Assembly (NCBI GenBank): GCA_963565915.1
Contig: OY751488.1
Location: 2,046,001 to 2,110,000, forward strand
Source: Entoloma clypeatum
Lineage: Eukaryota; Basidiomycota; Agaricomycetes; Agaricales; Entolomataceae
Direction of reading: 5' to 3'
DNA: 64,000 nt
The stretch's first letter is position 1. Each line of letters begins with the position of its first letter. A model generated the notes under the pieces. That model had not been told where the DNA came from. It saw only the letters and a list, made by a program, of their open reading frames with translations, and did not search any database. Positions 7,501-57,934 of the stretch are shown here, in pieces. A program made the position numbers and the translations under genes.

Positions 7501-10198
7501 CAGCGCCTTGATCTCTAGCTCTGAAAGCTCTTCCGCGTCCACCACAATCTTCGCTCCGTTCACCATCACCAGCCCCTTCTCCTTCCCCGGCGCCCGCCTA
7601 ACGATCGCGAGAAGCCGGTCATCATCCACAAACATTGCATCGTGCATCATTGAGAGCCACAGCCCCCCGCCCCCCGTCGACAGGCGATGCCGTCGCAGAC
7701 ACGAAAGTGTCTGCGGTGGCGGGTCGACGACGATATCCAGCGATTGTGCCCACGTGTCCATATCGCACCGGATCTCGCACTCGATCATGGGCGACGACAA
7801 GGCCGCGTCGTCTGTCGCGTTCGTCCGCCGGCTGGCTGAAGCCTCGTACTCAACTCTGAAACTCGACTTCTCATGGTCGTATCGCAGTTCATTAGCCCTG
7901 GCGCCTGATAGACGTGTCATGATCGGGGGACCACCGCATTTGATGGCAAAATCTCCAATCCCCGCGAGGTAGTTGATCATTTGTGTTGGAATGGAAGTCT
8001 TGTTTGTCCATCCTTTGGGGTCAGATTGCTCCAGCAAGGTTAACAAAGTAGTCGTGGGTGACAGAGCCTCGATGGACCAACCCTGTAGATCGACTTGAGT
8101 ACGGATAACATTGGGATCCACGGGTGGGATGTTGGGGAAAAGATGAGAGTCGTCAGCAGAGAAAGAGAAGACGTGGATAGTCGTAGGAGATTTGTATACA
8201 GTCTTGAGGACCACAGCATCACGACCGCTTTTTATATATTGGAGGTCAGAATATGAGTGCAATGGTGTAAGATGCAGTGCGACTCACTTGACGGGCCAAG
8301 CCGGTCGTGTTTTATAATGCCACAGCTCGGTAAGTTCGTTGACATCTTCTAATAACACTGCGTCCTCGTGTTGCTTATCCCAGTAGATCTTAGCTCCAGG
8401 CGTGACGACGGCTCCATAAAGGTCCCAAAGCCCGACGCCAACAAACGTTGCTTCTGCTCGGTAAACCACAAGGGTGGGATCTATCGAATCCAGCTGAGTG
8501 ATAGACACTCCTCTGGCCTCTGTGGCTGAGAAACAAAGTCAGCAATCAAACATATCTGAGGGTGACAAACATACTGCGCCTCCATTTGGCTTCCGGTTCT
8601 TGTAGTAACGACGAGAAGTAAATATAATTTCTTCGTACTTTGGACAGGATTGATTTGTCCGCAGCAGCCGTACGTTCAACCGTCGGACGAACGGAGATAT
8701 GCATCGACGAGGTGGAAACTCCACTGTTAACAGTCCCCAACGATGAACTCGTTTGGAAGCTTAGGTCAACGGCACTTGAGACGTCTTGGAGAATTTGTTC
8801 GGAAATGAAATAGCAAGACGGGTCGCGTTCCTCTACTTCTTGTATGGTCTGAGGTATACCATTGAGTCGAAGTCCGCTGGAAGGACCGGATCTTTCAATG
8901 ACGACATTGACTTTGAGGACAGAGTTATCATCAATCAAGGCCGCGTGTGAAACCCTGAACGTGATCTGATCAGGAGTTATCGAGGAGGGCGACGAGCTGC
9001 TCCGAATCGCATGGGTTGTCCAAGGCAATTGTTCAACTTCTTCAGAAGACGCTTTCGTGGTTACACGAGCATCCCACCCTTCCGAGGAGGGCAGGATACA
9101 TTCGATTGAACGCGTAAGTCTTTGCTGCTCTCGGAGAGTGTGTACTTCGTTCATGCCATGCATGGTGGGATGTTCCTCGTCTTCAGGTACGATAGCATAG
9201 TCAATAGTGAGCGCTTCCCGATCGACTTGAAATCGGATGCGCTCGATGCTGACGCTGTTTCCGTAACCTGTCAACTTGGCGACATGGGTTCCACGTTTGA
9301 GGACGGTCTTCAAAAGCCCAAGCGCCATGGTGGAAAGTTGTTGTGTGAGACCAGAAGTTGTGGCCAAGTTCCAGAGGGACTTAAGATCGTGCTGCCAGAA
9401 GCAGGTCACGCGAATCTTTCCGGGCGATGATGATGGCTTTCTGATCTTCTCGTTGGGCACGGGGGGAGGTGGTTGAGGCTGGATATGTTGAATGCACCAT
9501 GCGAACACTGACAGCGAAAGGGTAAGTAGATGAGTCTCTTGGGGAAGGAGAGACATACAAGAAACGTGGGAGCGAACATATGGGGGAGAAGGCCGCAAAT
9601 ATGCTGGTTCGTCCGGAGAGCGTGGAAGAGAGGTGGTGATGTCAAGGACGGTCGTAGGATCATAAAATGAACGGGATATGGTGACCGCATCTCGCGGGCT
9701 TGGGGATGGGTCAGACATGGGACTGTAACTCAGGATAGAGCTCACTTTGCTGGCCACCCTAGTGTAAAATTAGTTTTCGATATTCGAGTGGTATGGTCGA
9801 ACATCTCTAGTAGGCGGGCCTCTTCCACAGCAGGATCCCACTCCTGTCTCAGTTCGGGGGTTGTGAGGACAGCTCTCCAAGGTTCCAACGAAACAAGTTC
9901 GTCGCCCGTAGGGATGTCTAGAATGAGTCGGTAAACGTCCTCTGCTGCCTTGTTGGCGAAGCGATGAATAGTGACATCAGTGAGCTCTGGTATTGATGAT
10001 GCTCGGGCTTTCCCCTTCTTGGTAGGAGATGCGTCGGCTGGGCTGGTTACTCTTCTCCAATCATTGGACGTCAAGAGCTGGCGAAACTGTGTTTCAGCAT
10101 CATCAAGTGCCTTTGACCATGCCTGTCGCAGACTGAAAGGAGTTGACGGGAACGATAGAGGACAAGGGTAAGTATACGAACCTAGAACCATCTGACAT
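4528..10198 (-). CDS. Large START-domain lipid-transfer protein with C-terminal membrane anchor
   Basis: Exon model: 10198-10182, 10132-9746, 9698-9559, 9507-8575, 8525-8288, 8227-5324, 5268-5100 and 5037-4528. The total is 5,298 nt, giving 1,765 residues with every junction in frame. START-like segments occur near residues 7-230 (EPWRAVLTTPELRQEWDP and a following RDAVTISRSFYDP) and near 915-1160 (VYKGSKVIEGVSAEELAAIV, RKKWDDRYDSV, KTGFPWRDRGFYL). These are the helix-grip strands that bind a lipid in the START family. A single hydrophobic helix near residues 1693-1715 (STVLAVAVIAFLIGSLLRSL) suggests a tail anchor leaving the START domains in the cytosol, as in membrane-contact-site lipid carriers (inference). 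The 62-nt last intron uses a GC donor. Exon 1 is only 17 nt, and an upstream in-frame ATG near 10519 is an alternative start. Confidence 0.8.
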
Positions 10199-31193: not shown

Positions 31194-31632
31194 AGTTACA
31201 AGGGTTTGATCAAGGAGGCGGGTAAAAATTGTGTAGTCGTGTGCACGTCCGAATACCGTTGTAATGCACGATTACTGGTAAGTAAGCGCAAGATCTAGAA
31301 TGCATATCGCCAAGATCGAGTAGTAATGAGGCCGAAGATCTATCAAAAGGGCTGCGATGAAGCGCGAAATACATCAAGCTTCAAAGCTTCAAGTCGCATG
31401 TGGTGAGAATCCAAGTGACTACAAGCTCCTGGCTGTGCTTCTTGGTCGGCTCCCGATGATGCAATGGATTGTACATTTGAACCGAAACCTCTGAGCCGCA
31501 CAGCGGAGTCTCACACCGCGTGTGTCAATGAGCGATCCATCACCCGTAGAATTCGGGGAGTCCTGGCAAAGGATGATGACGTCTTCTAAATTCCACGACT
31601 AAATTCGCCCAGGTGGATTTTTGGGAGATTGC

Positions 31633-31981
31633 TGTTGAACATATCGCCAGATATGTCGCACCATGTGCTTGTCACAGAAAGTGACTATAAGTCACTATTA
31701 CCATATATGTGAGTTTATGGTATAACCACGGACGCATGACTTGTTTATGTATTGTTTGTACAATGGTCCGTGCGCATATTGGATTAGTATAAATACCCAT
31801 GTATTTAGTACGATGAATCCTAACTTCTTGAACACCCCAGTTCTTTGAGTTAACTAACAAGCTAGTATAGCTTCTAGATTCCCTTTAGTTACTCTTAACC
31901 AGGTTAGTTGAGCTTCCACTATGCCTTCGTACCGCTACGTCTTGAGCACCCTTTGGGCAGCCTACGTCGGTTACATCATTA
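31633..31981 (+). repeat. Left LTR of the copia element
   Basis: 349 bp beginning TGTTGAACATATCG and ending ACATCATTA. A TATA box TATAAATA at 31788-31795 sets the likely U3/R border near 31820. The end is TA rather than the usual CA, fixed by comparison with the right LTR and the target duplication. Confidence 0.93.
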
Positions 31982-32757
31982 GGTTATGGGCCCCGGCCCT
32001 AGCGCCGCATGCTCTCAGTATCCTAGCTTTTGCGCTATTATTGGCAGCATCCGCTTTGTATACTAGCCTGGAGACTGGTTTCCTCAGCATCGAATACATC
32101 GAGCTCGACGGTTCCCTCAACGGTGAATCTCGCAGCATTCGAGGTATTGAATGTACCTTTCAGTGGGCCATTCTTGATCGATTGCTTGAGAGAATCCCTG
32201 TTACAATGATCGTATCACGAGAGCAAGTCCATATGGTGCCAACGGCACAGGGCTCAGTCCCTTCAGGTCTTGATGACAATGGACGCATCGTTGCACGATG
32301 CGGGGTGTGTCGACAACTTGTTGTTGACAGTCAGCATTGCCCAAGGCATTGCATAGACAACACCACTTTTGACTACTTGTGTACTACGTGTGATGCAGGA
32401 TCAGCCAGGACTCGAGTTCAAAACCGCAGACGGCGTAATCGCCGTACTGAGGTACCTGTTGCGGTACCTACCCAAGATGGAGATCCCACGGATCCTCCGC
32501 CCGTGTATGTTGATGATGGGACCATCCCTGAAGCACACGGAGCACCTCCTCTTTCGCCTCCGGCCCGACAAATTCGGTTGCCGGACAATGACCCCTTAAT
32601 TGAGGCGGCGAACAGAGCGAATGAAGTCATGCTCCCTATTCAGGGAGGATCTTGCACCTGTGGGCAACACAGCACTCAGGGCGCACATGACGATTGGGTA
32701 GAACTAGTGATGGCATTTCATATGCTACCACTAGACCAAACAGAGAACGAAGAATGA
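31921..32757 (+). CDS. Extra copia ORF starting in the LTR: two hydrophobic segments plus Cys cluster
   Basis: 278 codons, ATG in the LTR leader, reading through the LTR end and the primer-binding site. Residues about 6-20 and 28-48 are hydrophobic (SILAFALLLAASALYT) and may form two membrane helices. A cysteine/histidine cluster follows: C127, C130, H139, C140, H143, C144, C154 and C157, a zinc-binding pattern. Then comes a basic patch RVQNRRRRNRR near 166-176, a Pro/Asp-rich linker and a second small motif SCTCGQH. I do not recognize the family. It is not gag, which begins separately at 32847. It may aid membrane targeting or RNA handling, but that is speculation. The first 20 codons also exist in the right LTR. 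Confidence 0.65.
   Translation: MPSYRYVLSTLWAAYVGYIIRLWAPALAPHALSILAFALLLAASALYTSLETGFLSIEYIELDGSLNGESRSIRGIECTFQWAILDRLLERIPVTMIVSREQVHMVPTAQGSVPSGLDDNGRIVARCGVCRQLVVDSQHCPRHCIDNTTFDYLCTTCDAGSARTRVQNRRRRNRRTEVPVAVPTQDGDPTDPPPVYVDDGTIPEAHGAPPLSPPARQIRLPDNDPLIEAANRANEVMLPIQGGSCTCGQHSTQGAHDDWVELVMAFHMLPLDQTENEE
31982..31993 (+). other. Primer-binding site, half initiator-tRNA type
   Basis: GGTTATGGGCCC follows the LTR with no gap. It is complementary to the anticodon-arm segment GGGCCCAUAACC of eukaryotic initiator tRNA-Met, not to a tRNA 3' end. Drosophila copia is known to prime from a cleaved half initiator tRNA in this way. Confidence 0.75.
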
Positions 32758-32846
32758 TGATCGACAAGGCAGCTCGTCTATTTATTTTCTGATGCGCTTT
32801 TTCGATATTTCATATGCTGATTCTATTTATGTTTCACAGCATCATC

Positions 32847-35800
32847 ATGTCTTCAAACTCAAAACTCGACCTTGCTTCCTCCGTTCCCAAGCTCACCACC
32901 ACGAACTTCTCCATCTATCAGGAGAAAATGAGCGCCTACCTAAAGGCAGCTAAAGTGTGGAGGATCGTCACCGGCGATAAGAAAATCCCGGGTGATCCTA
33001 AAGAGACAGATTTCCAAGACAAGTTAAACACTTGGCATGAGCAGGACGATCAGGCCCAAGGCCTAATCCAGATGTCCATATCGGACTCTCTCGTCCATCA
33101 CATCAAGGGAGCTAAAACCTCCAAGGAGATGTGGGACCTGATCGCCACTAAACTGTCCACGGTCGGCCCGTCCACCGTCTTTGCTGATTTCCAGCAACTC
33201 CTCCGCACTTCTCTTTCTCCCGCCAATCCTTTATCTGGCATCGATAAGATGCAGACCCTATTTCAGCGACTCGAGCACAACCACATAGATATCCCCAAGT
33301 TCGTCCGGATCATGATGATCCTGAATGGACTGCCTCAGGGCTATGATGGTCTAGTACACAGCATCCTCTTTGATGCGGTGCACTATGTGGCGCCTGGCGG
33401 CAATCAGTCCACAGTACTCGAAATCGGGAAGGTAATCGAGCAAGTACGCTCGGAATACTTCTGTAAAAACCCGCACGCTCCACAGTCCCAAGGAAGCGCT
33501 CACGCGAATAAGATCTCTGCGGTAAAACGCGCTCGTCCCAACCCCCCGAAGTACCAGCCTCGCACTGGACCCTCTCAGAGATCTTCGGAAGGACCGGCTG
33601 CTAACCAGCAGCATTCGCATCAGCACTCCAAGCCCTGGAAGGGCAAGGGACGAGGAACTTCTGCCAGGAAGACCAAGGGCAAAGGACCCTGGAAAGGAAA
33701 AGAGAAGGCGCATTTTGCCTCCTCTGCCATGGATAGCGCCCCTGATGGGCAGCTTCCAATCCAGACCTTACCCAACATGGTCATTTACGGAAATGGGTCT
33801 ATCTTCACTCCGCACCCCTCATCATCCACCGACTGGAGGATTAGGAACAACCAATCGCTTGCGATCGGTAACATTCCTGGCCCAGGCCCTTTCACGGACC
33901 TGGATGGAGCGCGCACACTAGCTAACAGCATTGGTGTCCCTCCAACAGCTCAGAATCTAACTCGCCTCGTCGAGGTCCCTGCACTTCAACGTAATGAAGC
34001 TGCAACGTCAAGGCCGCTCTCAGCGCCTCCGACAATGGACCCCCGGAATCACCGCATTCCGGTTTTCGAAGAAACACCGAGTAGAATCAGCTGGGCCGAT
34101 GAGATGGAAACAGAAGACATAGCCCCCACCATAAGGGGCTATTACGATGAAGGATACGTCAATGACTATATGGAGTATGAAGTTTCCCGTGGTGATGGAA
34201 ACAACGACGACATGGGGTATGTTTCACATTCAAAAGCACGTACAATGCAGTTAACAAATACTTCACAGAAGCCTCTTTGGAGACGAGTGAATGGACGGCG
34301 GTCCAATGTATTTTTATCACCTGCTGTACACGCGCTTATAGCGCAAATAAATTCTCATTATGCGAATTGTGCTGAATGTAAGAAACAGAATCAATCCAAT
34401 TGGATTCTTGATTCAGGTGCATCATTGCACTTTACTTATGATATCAATGATTTCATTGAGTATACCCCACTAAAAGATCGTCAATCTGTGCAAATTGCGC
34501 AGAAAGGTCACACTATTCAGATCCTTGGACAAGGAACGGTGTTGATTAATCACACCAACAAGAAAAACGGGCGAGAACAAAATAAAATAACTCGTCTATC
34601 ACCCGTTTATTATATACCAGATTTAGACGTTCGTCTTTTATCTGTAGGCGAGATCCTTAAACAAGGAAATGAAATTAGCGGACGATTTGGTTCGATCACG
34701 CTAAAGACCAATTCAGGTCTTCCTTTGTTTATGTGTTATCCTCATAAGGCAAATGAATCGATTTATTGGCTAAACGCCACGATCATTAAAGAGGAACGAA
34801 TACACTTGGTTAGTCTTAGTGTCTCACAGTCTGTTGATTATGACACTTGGCACAAGCGATTCGGACACCCTTCACATGAAGTACTGCGACATGCTTCTAA
34901 ACATGTCAAAGGTTTCAATGGAGTGGACAAACCGTCCACTGAGCGACCCTGCAAAGGATGCGCTCTTGGAAAGATGCCTTCAAAATCTTTCCCACCATCT
35001 CAGACACGCGCTAAAGCACCTCTTGAGCTAATCCATTCGGATTTAAAGCAATTCAAGAAGGCAACTTATAGCAAATATAATTATTATATCAGCTTTGTTG
35101 ATGACTACACATCACACGCCTGGATCTCTTTATTGAGACTAAAATCCGATGCACACTCTGCACTTCGTGATTTTAATGCCATGGTTAAAAACCAATTCAA
35201 TACGACAATTAAAACTTGGCGTTTTGATGGCGGCGGTGAGTTTGTCCCTTTCCAAGCAGATATGCGTGAGATGGGAATCCAGGGTGAAGTTACTGTGCCG
35301 CACCAGCCACAACAAAACGGTCGAGCGGAACGTTTTAACAGAACTTTAATGGATAAAGCACTTGCTATGTTGCATGATGCTTGCCTACCCGAAATATGGA
35401 TTCAATTTGCGGTAGAACATGCACTTCACTTGTATAACCGAACTCCATTGAAAAGACATGGATGGCTTACTCCGTATGAGTCCCTTAAAAAGGAAAAGCC
35501 TGATGTGTCGAACCTACACATTTTTGGATGTGGTGCTTACGTCTTTCTTCCAAAAGAAATTTGTACTACCACCGCTAAATCCGAGCTGATGATCTTCATC
35601 GGATTTAAAACTGGAACTAAAGGTTACCGGTTTATGCGGATCCCAAACAACGTAGTCTTCATAGGTGTCACAGCAATGTTTGATGAACAGCTGTTCCCAA
35701 AATGTTCTACAATGAACAAAATACCTTCGATAACACAATACCATGATCCAACATCAGACGATATGGGAAACGATGATGCAAATGGACATGATGGCCCGTC

Positions 35801-38029
35801 TGATTTACCAACCGACGATTTCCATTCGGAAGAAAATGATGCACATGGTCCTGGCGGTTCACATTACCCGTCTAATCCAGGAACCCATGATGACAATCAT
35901 AACCTCCCTGATACAAATAGCGACCAAACTGGTCAGCTTCCCGAAGGTTCCAGTCAGACTTCTGATGGAACAAACAGACAGGACACCGCTGAGAATCAGC
36001 AGTGGGTTCCCCGGACTCGCAATCCAGGGAAACGTGTGCGCATAGATGCACCAAACGATGATCGTACCTTACCAGGCGATTATCGTCCACAAACTGATCG
36101 TCCTCGTCGTACTCGGGTTATACCCCAGCGTCCTGGAAATGTTTACGGGAATGACCCGGCTGAGGCCTTGCGTCAAAATCAGCGTGATTGGAGCAGAACC
36201 GTTCAGGAGGATTCACGGCGATACGCCTATAATCCCCGATCGGAGACCAGACCCCAGCAATCTGGCGCTGTTCCATCAACTAGCTCCGCTGATCCTCAGA
36301 TGTATCAGAACAATTCCAATCCGAATACGGATATAGATATGGAGGAATTACTCTATATTAGGAAAGGGGGAGGACAGTCACAAATGCTTGCGCACTTGCT
36401 ATCTAAAGCAATCCCTGCATATGACGAAATTCCACAAGACCCAAAGTCTTGGCAAACGATGGACATAAATAAGCTACCTGAAAAGGAAAAGCTTGAATGG
36501 AAAGCAGCATGCCGTGAGGAACTAGAAGCCCTCCGGAAGCGCAATGTCTTTAAGTTGGTTGACCTGCCTAAAGGTCGTAAAACCATCAGAAATCGATGGG
36601 TATTCGACGTCAAAACTGACGGACGAAAGAAGGCACGACTCGTTGCCAAGGGTTTCTCACAGATCGAGGGTATCGATTTTGATGAGATCTTCTCACCTGT
36701 GATACGTTTCGAGACTATCCGAATCCTCTTCGCCGTAGCTGCGCTTGAAGGATGGGTGATTGAAGGAGTAGATGTCAAATCAGCTTTTCTCTATGGAGAG
36801 CTCGATGAGGAAATCTATATGAATCAACCCGAAGGCTTTGTTGTCAAAGGCCAAGAACGGAAGGTCATCCGTTTATTAAAAGCACTCTATGGCCTAAAAC
36901 AGGCAGCAAGAGCGTGGTGGATCGCGCTCAATGCATCAATGGAGAAGCTAGGTTTTACTCGATGTAGAACTGACTCAGGCGTCTTTGTTTACCACAACAA
37001 ACAATCAGGTGATTTGATAATCGCTTTGATCTATGTTGATGACGGCCTGTTCATGGGATCAAACCCAGATCTTGTTCGCAAGATAAAATCTGACTTTAAA
37101 AATAAATGGGAAAGTCGTGATCTTGGTATTGCTAAAGAATTCTTGCGTATGAGAATACGACAAGATTCGGAAAAGCAGATCGTAACAATCGATCAGTCAG
37201 AATACCTGAAGAAGATCATTAAGCGCTTTGGCTTAGAAAATGCAAGGCTGCTGACACTCCACTCCCAAAGGGTTATTACCCTGCACCAAATGAGGGGGAG
37301 GTGGATCCCACACTCAAAACAAGGTACCAAATGATCATTGGATTGTTGTTGTACTTGTCCATTGGAACGAGACCGGACATTGCTTTTGCAGTTGCAAAAA
37401 TGTCGCAAATGTCTGCAAACCCTTCCAAAGAGCATGAAAAATACGCTCTGCGGATTATCAGATATCTTGTCGGTACTCAAGACTATTCTATAATCTATGA
37501 TGGTCGATCCAAAGCTTCCTTTGAAGCATGGACAGATTCAGACTGGGCATCAGACCCATCTGATAGAAAGTCCCAATTGGGATATTTCCTTAAGCTTGCA
37601 GGAGGACTTGTTCTTTGGAAAAGTCACAAGCAAAAGACAGTGGCACATTCGTCCACTGAGGCGGAAATGGTTGCTGCCAGTGAATGTTCGCGGGAGTGCG
37701 AATGGGTTACTCATCTCTTCAAAGAGCTTGGACTACAGGACATTACCAAAATGCCGTTCCATGTAGATAACCAAGGTGCGATTTTCAATGCGCAAAACCC
37801 AGTCACTGAAGGCAGAACCAAACATATAGCAATCCATCACTTTGCTATACGCGATAGAGTTCAAGATGGATTGATCGAACCACGGTTCGTTCCGGGAACT
37901 GAGAATCCGGCTGATATGTTTACCAAGCCACTTGGTCGCCAGGAATTTGAGAAATTCCGTGCTCTACTCCGAATGGAGTTTAAAGATCCTTATACTCCAC
38001 TTACGAAACCTACCCGGGATTCTAAGTGA
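32847..38029 (+). pseudogene. copia gag-pol polyprotein broken by one frameshift
   Basis: The first frame runs from ATG 32847 (an upstream in-frame ATG is at 32814) to a stop at 37334. The second frame, offset by one base, runs to 38029. Numbered from 32814: a UBN2-type gag occupies about 15-230; a Gly/Lys-rich basic stretch replaces a CCHC zinc knuckle, which I do not find; the protease Asp-Ser-Gly is at 533. The integrase His/Cys domain spans about 680-715 (WHKRFGHP, CKGCALGK), and its catalytic residues are Asp743, Asp805 and a Glu near 839 in NGRAERFNR. Reverse transcriptase spans about 1225-1480 with YVDD near 1407. The frame is lost near 37243-37250, just after FGLENAR. RNase H (DSDWASDP, STEAEMVA) lies in the second frame. 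Confidence 0.92.
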
Positions 38030-38036
38030 GGGGGAG
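38026..38036 (+). other. Polypurine tract
   Basis: GTGAGGGGGAG abuts the right LTR and is the normal plus-strand priming signal of LTR elements. It overlaps the end of the gag-pol reading frame. Confidence 0.8.
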
Positions 38037-38385
38037 TGTTGAACATATCGCCAGATATGTCGCACCATGTGCTTGTCACAGAAAGTCACTATAAGTCACT
38101 ATTACCATATATGTGAGTTTATGGTATAACCACGGACGCATGACTTGTTTATGTATTGTTTGTACAATGGTCCGTGCGCATATTGGATTAGTATAAATAC
38201 CCATGTATTTAGTACGATGAATCCTAACTTCTTGAACACCCCAGTTCTTTGAGTTAACTAACAAGCTAGTATAGCTTCTAGATTCCCTTTAGTTACTCTT
38301 AACCAGGTTAGTTGAGCTTCCACTATGCCTTCGTACCGCTACGTCTTGAGCGCCCTTTGGGCAGCCTACGTCGGTTACATCATTA
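38037..38385 (+). repeat. Right LTR of the copia element
   Basis: 349 bp matching the left LTR except for a G/C change after CAGAAAGT and an A/G change in CTTGAGC[A/G]CCC. It carries the same TATA box, splice donor and ATG, so a transcript starting here could run into the flank toward 39 kb. Confidence 0.93.
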
Positions 38386-38390
38386 ATTGC

Positions 38391-55696: not shown

Positions 55697-57934
55697 TCAC
55701 TTCTCCCCATCATCCTCTGAAGACATGTCAAGGTCAAAATCTTCTCTGCCCGAGTCTCCAGCATCCTCGACGGCCTTTTCATAGAGTTTTGGCTTTGTGA
55801 TTGCACCTTCTGCTTTCCATTCAGGATCAGTTTTCTTTGGCTTCCAGTGAGTTGCTTCCCACTCTCTGATCTTACCACCCATTGCCTTAATCTCTGCTTT
55901 TGCAACCTTCCAGGCCTCCTCTGCCTTCTTCCACTCAGCTTCACACTTCTCGTTACGGACCTTTCGTGCTGCTTCTGCAGCTCTCCAATTGTCCATCTCC
56001 TTATCATATGTTTTGCGCTGGTCCTTCATACCCTGCTTCTTCTTCTTTGCCGCTGCCGTGGCCTCTTTCTTTTTCTTGACCTGCTGAACAAAGTCCTCAT
56101 GTGTGAGGAGGGGTGCTAGTTTCTCATCCAACTGTCCTCCATCGTCTTTCTTATCCCGTTTCTTTTCCTTTGCCCCCAGTTGACCACGAACACAAGCGCA
56201 ATAGATCTGTTGGATGCACACCTGTGCCTGCAACTGCATGGCCACTCCCTTCACCTCCATTACCTTGGCCCGGGCTATCTCCAGCTCTTGCTCAAGCTCA
56301 AGTTCTCGCAAGGTTTGTGGTTTGTGCTCGGTCATCCGTTTCACTGCTCCCCTATGCTTAACTGGCGAAATGTTGATGTTCGGCATGTCTGGTGGTGGGG
56401 TTGAGGCTTTAATGGGAGATTTTGAGACGAGATATCCAAGGCTGGTGCTGGCGAGCTGTGGGACTGCAACACGAACTGGAAATGATGGTAGGTTTTGTGG
56501 CATTCCTGGGTCATCGTGAGGCTGAATAACATCCATAAGGAGGTCGGATACGATACAAATTGGTGTCGAAGGAATTATGGGAGTAAAAACCTTATAAGAG
56601 GTGTCTTTACTGGGAGCCATCATCTCTGGTGTGACAACGTTTCGATCGACGGGAATGATGCCAGTTTTGCGAAATCCTGTCTTGATTAGGTTCGGAGTCA
56701 GAGTATTCAGGTGAGCTTGACCATAGATCTTCAAAAAATTCTCCTTCGTGATTGCCTCCCCAGTTGTGCGAAGATTCTCGTCCCAGAGACGGCCAAATTC
56801 AAGTTTCAGGGGAGCAAAAAGAACAACATCAAGACATTGATAGATGTGTGTAGCCTGCTTCGGGTAAGCAGCAACTTTGATGGTCTGTGCGATGCAATAC
56901 TGAAGGAATTCATAGGTAATGTGGGAGTCATGTGAGTCAAGCCATAAGACTTGGGTTCACCTGTGTGCAATCTTTTTGGTTTGAGCATCAAAGTCCTTGG
57001 CATACTCGACACAGATTGTTTGGTTTGTCCATCCCTTCTTTGAGTACCCCAGCCTGAAACCTTAGTCAGTATATTTCTCTATGGATGTTGGGTTGACTTA
57101 CGAGGCATTTGCAGGATTATCCTGAAGCCAACGAACTCGATAGGCCTTTCCCTTGAAAATTACAGCTGGGTTCAATGGTTTTCCATGGCCACCCACTGTC
57201 ACCAGCACAGTTGTATTTTCACGTGTTCCCTTCTGTTGTTGATACTGAACCTTCTTGCCAGTTGCACCAATCACCTTCTCGAAGTCCTCGTTCCCGTTTG
57301 GCTGAAATCCTATTTCATCCATTGCATACGTGCATTCTGGTGCAATGGGCTTTCCATTATCGCCACGTAACTGGACCTCCTCAACCAAATCAAAGTGCAG
57401 CTTGTTAGCTGTTTTATTGACAGCTTGCCCACGTGCTGTGTCGAGAGATTTAGCTGTATAAATGTGTAGACATTCAGAGTGCTTCTCAATGAAATGCCGT
57501 GTCCAATTCTGTCCCACACCATCCTCCGGAAACTTGGATCCCAGTCGTGCTCGAAGTATGTGATTGATATGTTCCGTCATTCATCGTTGGCTCAGTGGAT
57601 GGCCCCAATCAGCTGTTTCAATGGCAAAACGGATGACCTCCTCAGTTTCATCATATGTGATCCAACTTTTGTCCTCGAAATTCGCCTGAGCTCGTGTGCG
57701 ACCACCGTTGATAAGATTATGCAAGGTATTGTGGCACAGTACAACTCTGTGCTTTGTTTTAAAGTAGTACTCATCTGACACCAGTCGACAAATCATACGG
57801 AGGCCATCTCGTCTCTCGCCATCAGGCTTTGTGAGCTCCTGTTGATACCAAACAACAGCCAGCTTCATGACTTTGTCCTGTTCCTCTCGGCTGATCTGGG
57901 CTTTCTTGGTCTGAGAAAGAGCTTTCCGAGCCAT
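55697..57934 (-). pseudogene. pogo-like transposase with CENP-B-type HTH and DDE_1 domain, two premature TGA codons
   Basis: The N-terminal part (57934-57584) is a helix-turn-helix region with KAQISREEQDKVMKLAVVWY. A TGA at 57583-57581 interrupts it, and the same frame resumes at once with MTEHINHILRARLGSKFPED. An intron is predicted at 57101-57054. A second in-frame TGA lies at 56959-56957, before the VLWLDSHDSH motif. The DDE acids are expected in CTYAMDEIGFQPNG, VLWLDSHDSH and IYQCLDVVLFAPLK. The C-terminal third (55697-56500) is a Lys/Glu-rich coiled coil ending in an acidic tail. Without the two stops it would be a full-length transposase of about 700 residues (inference). Confidence 0.85.

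What the first reader, a model, noticed from the sequence alone, without database searches (positions are those of the whole stretch)
31903..32847. Extra copia ORF packaged inside a predicted intron that starts in the LTR
The copia element has a 278-codon ORF before gag. It starts in the LTR leader and is flanked by a near-ideal donor (CAG/GTTAGT) 18 nt before its ATG and an acceptor (TTTCACAG) 7 nt before the gag ATG. Unspliced RNA would give the extra protein first, and spliced RNA would give gag-pol first. Splicing would also remove the primer-binding site, so only unspliced RNA could be reverse transcribed. That would be a built-in switch between genome and message. I know of no described copia element with this layout.
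Basis: partly seen in the sequence, partly recalled or inferred. Interest (0 to 1): 0.88.

Follow-up and report, generated by a model that had tools for sequence, protein, structure and literature searches.

The report
Copia retrotransposon with protein-coding leader intron
A jumping gene in an unnamed, probably fungal genome seems to carry an intron at the front of its message that holds both an extra protein gene and the site where copying starts, so that splicing would separate the RNA that makes its proteins from the RNA that is copied; sister copies keep these parts, but no RNA has yet been examined.

Summary
Confirmed at the stated places: a Ty1/copia element (31633-38385) has a 278-codon ORF1 (31921-32757) that starts in the 5' LTR. 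A predicted 937-nt intron (31903-32839) holds ORF1 and the primer-binding site and ends 7 nt before the gag ATG. The own genome holds 88 near-complete ORF1 copies of 80% identity or more. ORF1 is under purifying selection (dN/dS 0.21; 0.82 and 1.83 in shifted frames; gag 0.115); 68 of 94 aligned copies are intact. On a tree of 92 copies the eight core donor sites, the CTRA branch core and the acceptor AG show no change, while sites that splicing tolerates change often (donor +7: 15; acceptor -4: 22; branch Y: 13, all C/T). ORF1 has no relative in the collections searched. A second copia family has a similar predicted leader intron without ORF1. Best reading: unspliced RNA is genome and ORF1 message; spliced RNA, without PBS, is gag-pol message. 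Splicing is unmeasured and the role of ORF1 unknown. Nine library searches found no described element of this layout; a 2005 paper states that no intron upstream of gag was known. New variant of a known kind.

The parts
31628..31632 (+). target-site repeat ATTGC, 5' side
   Evidence: sequence
31633..31981 (+). 5' LTR, 349 bp
   Evidence: 2 mismatches to the 3' LTR
31788..31795 (+). TATA-like box TATAAATA; RNA start estimated near 31822
   Evidence: sequence; start estimated, not measured
31900..31908 (+). predicted 5' splice site CAG|GTTAGT inside the LTR
   Evidence: core unchanged in 92 of 92 aligned copies; +3 is T (74) or C (18)
31903..32839 (+). predicted leader intron, 937 nt, holding ORF1 and PBS
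31921..32757 (+). ORF1, 278 codons: hydrophobic N-terminus, C/H cluster, arginine-rich stretch
   Evidence: purifying selection; no homologue found
31982..31998 (+). primer-binding site GGTTATGGGCCCCGGCC directly after the LTR
   Evidence: sequence; conserved in copies and present in leaders of two other copia families, e.g. L118 and L119; match to the initiator tRNA anticodon arm is recalled
32505..32510 (+). possible internal donor GTATGT; joined to the same acceptor it would fuse ORF1 residues 1-194 in frame to gag
   Evidence: GTNNGT in 89 of 92 copies; not conserved beyond what coding sequence would give
32817..32821 (+). predicted branch site CTGAT (CTGAC in 20 of 92; CTAAT in L099)
   Evidence: CTRA core unchanged, Y changes 13 times, C/T only
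32837..32839 (+). predicted 3' splice site CAG
   Evidence: AG unchanged; position -4 changes 22 times
32847..37334 (+). gag-pol frame (gag, protease region, integrase, RT)
37301..38029 (+). rest of pol in another frame: pol is broken in this copy
   Evidence: not mended
38037..38385 (+). 3' LTR
38386..38390 (+). target-site repeat ATTGC, 3' side
   Evidence: sequence

Best explanation
A young member of a multi-copy Ty1/copia family. Transcription from the 5' LTR gives one RNA. If the spliceosome removes the leader intron (31903-32839), the message loses the PBS and ORF1, and gag becomes the first open frame: this is the gag-pol mRNA. If the intron stays, the RNA keeps the PBS and can be the reverse-transcription template, and as an mRNA it gives ORF1 rather than gag. 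Genome and gag-pol message would thus be different RNAs, and Gag-Pol would package the genome in trans. Shown here: the layout, protein-level selection on ORF1, and conservation of donor, branch site and acceptor in sister copies. Inferred: that splicing takes place, that only part of the RNA is spliced, and the division of translation. For ORF1 I commit, weakly (about 0.3), to an accessory protein that works on or with the unspliced RNA (retention, export or packaging).
For: Own-genome search: 140 matches to ORF1, LTR fragments included, 88 of them spanning residues 1-275 or more at 80% identity or better. All 94 rows with the gag profile range of this family have an ORF1 hit within 2.5 kb upstream by position. 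dN/dS of ORF1 0.214 in 68 intact copies, 0.816 and 1.831 in the shifted frames; gag 0.115. Tree counts over 92 copies: donor core 0 changes at 8 sites against 2.32 per site in the 78 leader sites before it; +7 15 changes; branch CTRA 0 at 4 sites; branch Y 13 changes, all C/T; acceptor AG 0; -4 22 changes. No AG between branch site and acceptor in 92 of 92. Donor kept in copies whose ORF1 is only 66-80% identical. No upstream ATG in 89 of 92 leaders, while 74% of letter shuffles of the window's leader have one; gag ATG has A at -3 in 92 of 92. A second copia family has GTAAGT in the LTR leader, ACTGAT and TTAG just before gag, around its PBS.
Against: No RNA data. No spliced genomic copy was found, which fits loss of the PBS but gives no positive proof. 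Donor +3 is T or C, not the purine of the usual consensus (consensus recalled). 32 of the 78 leader sites and 28 of 56 gap sites also show no change, so the simple site test is modest: P 0.013 for the donor, 0.062 for branch plus AG. ORF1 has T or C at -3 in 54 of 92 copies, so its start is often weak. One divergent copy (L097) has AAG at the acceptor; L096 and L099 have no donor at the place.
Confidence: 0.72

Rival explanations
1. The intron is real and spliced, but it is mainly a device to get a long, ATG-rich PBS leader out of the gag mRNA; ORF1 is a later arrival in it with a separate role, and there is no regulated switch.
For: A second copia family of the genome has a predicted leader intron around the PBS; in L118 it is about 430 nt and has no ORF of 50 codons or more.
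Against: ORF1 lies upstream of all 94 gag rows of this family listed and is constrained, so it is not an idle passenger.
Confidence: 0.3
2. A shorter intron from an internal donor (32505) to the same acceptor fuses ORF1 residues 1-194 in frame to gag, giving a tagged Gag besides plain Gag.
For: GTATGT at 32505 is present as GTNNGT in 89 of 92 copies and is in frame with gag.
Against: Two changes at its first base, one at its last, and no conservation beyond coding sequence; the C-terminal part of ORF1, which would be skipped, is also constrained (residues 231-278: dN/dS 0.25).
Confidence: 0.1
3. No splicing: gag is reached by reinitiation, internal entry or an internal promoter, and the splice-like motifs are chance or serve U1 binding only, as in suppression of 5' LTR polyadenylation in foamy viruses.
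For: U1 binding to an LTR donor has that role in foamy viruses (PMC3694450, abstract and passages). A TATA-like stretch lies near 32779. The ATGs at 32814 and 32829 are in frame with gag.
Against: U1 binding would not explain the unchanged branch core and AG and the AG-free tract. The TATA-like stretch is altered in divergent copies L097, L098 and L100. In the window copy 22 ATGs lie between ORF1's start and 32814.
Confidence: 0.1
4. ORF1 is a spurious frame.
For: No homologue by sequence; low-confidence fold.
Against: Frame-specific purifying selection; C/H cluster mostly kept even in divergent copies.
Confidence: 0.02

Closest known systems
Spliced copia elements: Drosophila copia, barley BARE1, Arabidopsis EVD
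   Same: Ty1/copia; splicing separates RNAs with different coding roles (PMC3735527, passages; PMC8892269, passages).
   Different: In BARE1 and EVD (passages seen) the spliced RNA makes Gag only and unspliced RNA codes for gag-pol; for Drosophila copia I recall the same. Here the intron is upstream of gag, holds the PBS, and unspliced RNA would code for another protein first.
Ogre (plant Ty3/gypsy) and rice Retrosat2/FRetro3 (ORF0)
   Same: An extra ORF of unknown function upstream of gag-pol (Ogre: PMC1142308, passage; ORF0: PMC3485330, passage).
   Different: Plant elements, gypsy type (for Retrosat2 recalled). PMC1142308 states that no intron upstream of gag was reported for any LTR retroelement, Ogre included. 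The ORF sequences were not compared here.
Soybean Diaspora (Ty3/gypsy)
   Same: Predicted donors in the LTR and acceptors at the gag start (PMC1142308, passage).
   Different: Long leader without extended ORFs; sites predicted with medium confidence, their relevance called unknown by the authors.
Foamy viruses (major splice donor in R)
   Same: Donor inside the LTR (PMC3694450, passages), so splicing would remove the PBS (inference).
   Different: A spliced RNA serves pol (passage), not gag; no ORF between donor and gag (recalled).

Membership tests
Ty1/copia LTR retrotransposon | LTR pair with target-site repeat | tested here: met
Ty1/copia LTR retrotransposon | gag - integrase - RT order | tested here: met
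   Retrotran_gag_2, Pol_BBD, gag_pre-integrs, rve (below its cut-off) and rve_3, SH3, RVT_2 in this order; the last part of pol (37301-38029) gave no Pfam match
Ty1/copia LTR retrotransposon | PBS directly after the LTR | tested here: met
   sequence; the same string in L118, L119 and L121-L125, a near-identical one in L120; tRNA identity recalled
Spliced copia type (copia, BARE1, EVD) | intron at or after gag giving a Gag-only mRNA | not tested
   the splice signals studied lie upstream of gag; introns further downstream were not sought
Spliced copia type (copia, BARE1, EVD) | spliced RNA observed | not testable with these tools
   no RNA data
LTR elements with an ORF upstream of gag (Ogre, Retrosat2) | conserved extra ORF upstream of gag | tested here: met
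LTR elements with an ORF upstream of gag (Ogre, Retrosat2) | ORF homologous to Ogre ORF1 or ORF0 | not tested
   those proteins were not compared directly; no hit in the general protein searches
Foamy-type LTR donor | donor inside the LTR | tested here: met
   donor at 31900-31908 within the LTR 31633-31981; position in R or U5 unknown
Foamy-type LTR donor | acceptors downstream of gag | not tested
   the acceptor studied is upstream of gag; others were not sought

The most novel reading that the evidence does not exclude
A retroelement with reversed retroviral logic: the genome RNA cannot make Gag-Pol but makes a dedicated protein (ORF1) from inside the intron that would otherwise be spliced away, and that protein acts on the intron's fate (Rev-like retention or export, or packaging of the RNA that encodes it), while all Gag-Pol comes from spliced RNA that cannot be copied.
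Probability: 0.22. Interest if true: 0.9.

Novelty: new variant of a known kind. Interest (0 to 1): 0.68.

Why it matters
How one retroelement RNA serves both as message and as genome was called a major question in 2013 (PMC3735527, abstract). An intron that carries the PBS would answer it by construction: only unspliced RNA can be copied, only spliced RNA makes Gag-Pol. About 90 natural copies and a second family without the ORF make this testable from RNA-seq. The LTR also brings a promoter-like box plus a 5' splice site wherever it lands, so it could splice into neighbouring genes.

Tried and rejected
ORF1 homology: no protein with E up to 10 for ORF1 alone or for an alignment of 10 copies without inner stops (where the 7994 candidates sharing most words were scored); no relative in viral contigs; only two insignificant PDB hits, E 2.1 and 2.3; one sub-threshold Pfam match. 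The protein collection holds few relatives of this element even for gag-pol (11 hits, top hit 36% identity), so the absence is weak evidence. The fold of ORF1 without an alignment has mean pLDDT 40 and was not searched. The CCHC search of the genome scored 150 of 2835 candidates, mostly repeats of one kind, and told nothing about this family. The first dN/dS run used a wrong gag frame (redone). Spliced genomic copy: the pattern gave 10 exact matches; by position 10 of 10 lie just after an ORF1 hit on the same strand, so they carry the C variant at acceptor -4 and not the junction. Internal promoter and internal donor were considered. The host species was not determined; 'fungal, probably basidiomycete' is my reading of gene content and introns.

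Full report
What is there. Window 31633-38385 is a Ty1/copia retrotransposon: two 349-bp LTRs with 2 mismatches, 5-nt repeats ATTGC on both sides, and Pfam domains in copia order. ORF1 (31921-32757, 278 codons) starts in the 5' LTR, reads through the LTR end and the primer-binding site (from 31982), and ends 89 nt before the gag ATG at 32847. The predicted intron is 31903-32839, 937 nt. The pol frame of this copy is broken near its end; other copies have longer open frames (up to 1756 codons against 1513 here). This was described only, not mended.

Chance. In 20,000 dinucleotide shuffles of leader and gap, a donor AGGTNAGT occurs in 1.5%, a branch site plus YAG within 10 nt of the gag ATG in 2.5%, both in 0.055%.

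Sister copies. The own genome (60 Mb, 20 contigs) gave 140 ORF1 matches; 88 rows span residues 1-275 or more at 80% identity or better, and one more row (66%) also spans 1-278 (by the tool's own statement lower bounds; short rows at the end are mostly LTR-coded first residues). I fetched 100 loci: the 87 of the 88 other than the window's own, and 13 divergent or partial ones. Seven (L101-L107) were left out of the alignment because they are pieces or interrupted; 94 rows remain (window plus 93). 68 of 94 have an intact ORF1 (66 distinct sequences). Of the 26 others, 19 have one inner TGA and 7 have several defects or a frame change. At 18 of these 19 the window has CGA, at one (L025) TGG, read against the sequence. 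For leader statistics L096 and L099 were dropped because their leaders do not align (92 rows).

ORF1 is a real protein gene. Over all pairs of the 68 intact copies, dN/dS is 0.214, against 0.816 and 1.831 in the two shifted frames; gag gives 0.115 (shifted 1.571 and 2.529). By segment: LTR-coded residues 1-20 0.138, 21-60 0.100, 61-120 0.227, 121-165 0.158, 166-230 0.450, 231-278 0.250. The 94 rows that share the window's gag profile range all have an ORF1 hit within 2.5 kb upstream by position; one search scored only 150 of 1152 candidates.

Splice signals. In 92 copies the donor is CAG|GTTAGT (74) or CAG|GTCAGT (18); the branch site is CTGAT (72) or CTGAC (20); the acceptor ends in CAG in 90, TAG and AAG in one each; AG is invariant (one search prints counts over all 94 rows). 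The two dropped rows have no donor at that place; their acceptors are ACAG, and the branch site of L099 is CTAAT. On a tree, the 8 donor core sites have 0 changes, while the 78 leader sites before them have 2.32 per site; donor +3 has 1, +7 15, +8 5. The CTRA core has 0 changes; the Y position 13, all between C and T. Acceptor AG 0, -3 2, -4 22. This is the tolerance pattern of spliceosomal sites (consensus recalled). Against this: 32 of the 78 leader sites, 7 of 12 sites at 31909-31920 and 28 of 56 gap sites also have no change, and the cruder site test, which ignores how often a site changes, is modest: P 0.013 for the donor and 0.062 for branch plus AG. No AG lies between branch site and acceptor in 92 of 92. 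Among 12 divergent or partial loci, the donor is found at the right place in 9 (L095, L097, L098, L100, L101, L102, L105, L106, L107); L099 has a donor-like string elsewhere, L103 and L104 none; the acceptor pattern is found in 8 of 12. Two host introns that I inferred by eye on the window's minus strand near 8574 and 8285 have the same kind of branch site, CTGAC.

Translation logic. With the RNA start estimated near 31822 from the TATA-like box, 89 of 92 copies have no ATG before ORF1; 74% of 2000 letter shuffles of the window's leader do have one. In the window copy 25 ATGs (ORF1's own included) precede the gag ATG in unspliced RNA; the last two, 32814 and 32829, are in frame with gag and would only lengthen it. 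ORF1 has A at -3 in 38, T in 29, C in 25 of 92 copies; gag has A in 92 of 92. So unspliced RNA should give little Gag, and ORF1 from a weak start in many copies.

The protein. It has no sequence relative in the collections searched. Its N-terminus is hydrophobic (peak 32-50) and modelled as two helices with low to moderate confidence; the rest of the model is unreliable. A cluster CxxC-x8-HC-xx-HC-x9-CxxC (127-157) and CxCxxH (245-250) is nearly invariant in the 68 intact copies and mostly kept in divergent ones: among divergent rows that cover it, L100 lacks C130 and H139, L103 has F for C140, L104 has Y for H143. An arginine-rich stretch follows at 163-175. Pfam finds no CCHC knuckle in the window's gag-pol. 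A zinc- and RNA-binding role is an inference from these features only.

Other copia families. Leaders of further families were read from 9 loci. In one family (L117, L118, L121-L125) a GTAAGT donor lies in the LTR leader before the PBS in 4 of 7 loci (2 others start inside the motif, 1 after it), TTAG stands just before the gag ATG in 6 of 7, and ACTGAT in 5 of 7; L117 lacks the leader. No ORF1-like frame was listed in L118. The two others, L119 and L120, have short stretches between PBS and gag and no ORF1-like frame there. So a leader intron around the PBS may be older than ORF1.

Literature. Seen as passages only: BARE1 (PMC3735527), EVD (PMC8892269), Diaspora (PMC1142308), Retrosat2 ORF0 (PMC3485330), foamy virus donor (PMC3694450), additional ORFs (PMC7264820), Laccaria transposons (PMC3411680), RNA dimerization (PMC5874298). 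None of these passages describes an ORF and PBS inside an intron upstream of gag. PMC1142308 states in 2005 that no intron upstream of gag had been reported. The library holds open-licence papers only, so older or subscription papers were not seen.

Verdict. The anatomy and its conservation are well supported; splicing in cells is likely but unmeasured; the switch is the best reading; the role of ORF1 is open.

Noticed in passing
L117, L118, L121-L125: A second copia family with a predicted intron from the LTR leader to just before gag, around the PBS, without ORF1.
   Followed up: partly
window 37254-37334: The pol frame of this copy breaks; sister copies with longer open frames exist.
   Followed up: no
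L012-L095 (ORF1 copies with one inner stop): 18 of 19 single stops stand where the window has CGA, and 1100 of 2068 changes on terminal branches are C to T or G to A, as expected of deamination or a RIP-like process after insertion.
   Followed up: partly
window 38037-38385: The 3' LTR carries the promoter-like box, donor, ATG and 20 codons of ORF1, so any LTR could splice or read into flanking DNA.
   Followed up: no
window 32505-32510: Internal GTATGT that would fuse the first 194 residues of ORF1 in frame to gag with the same acceptor.
   Followed up: partly
window 32416-32754: Synonymous diversity in the 3' part of ORF1 (pS about 0.07) is below half that of gag (0.178) but close to the diversity of the noncoding gap (0.069); recombination between subfamilies or RNA-level constraint could cause this.
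   Followed up: no
window 32847-33720: No CCHC zinc knuckle found by Pfam in this gag, though ORF1 has a C/H cluster.
   Followed up: partly
window 55697-56734: Minus-strand frame that looks to me like the end of a DDE transposase; not searched.
   Followed up: no
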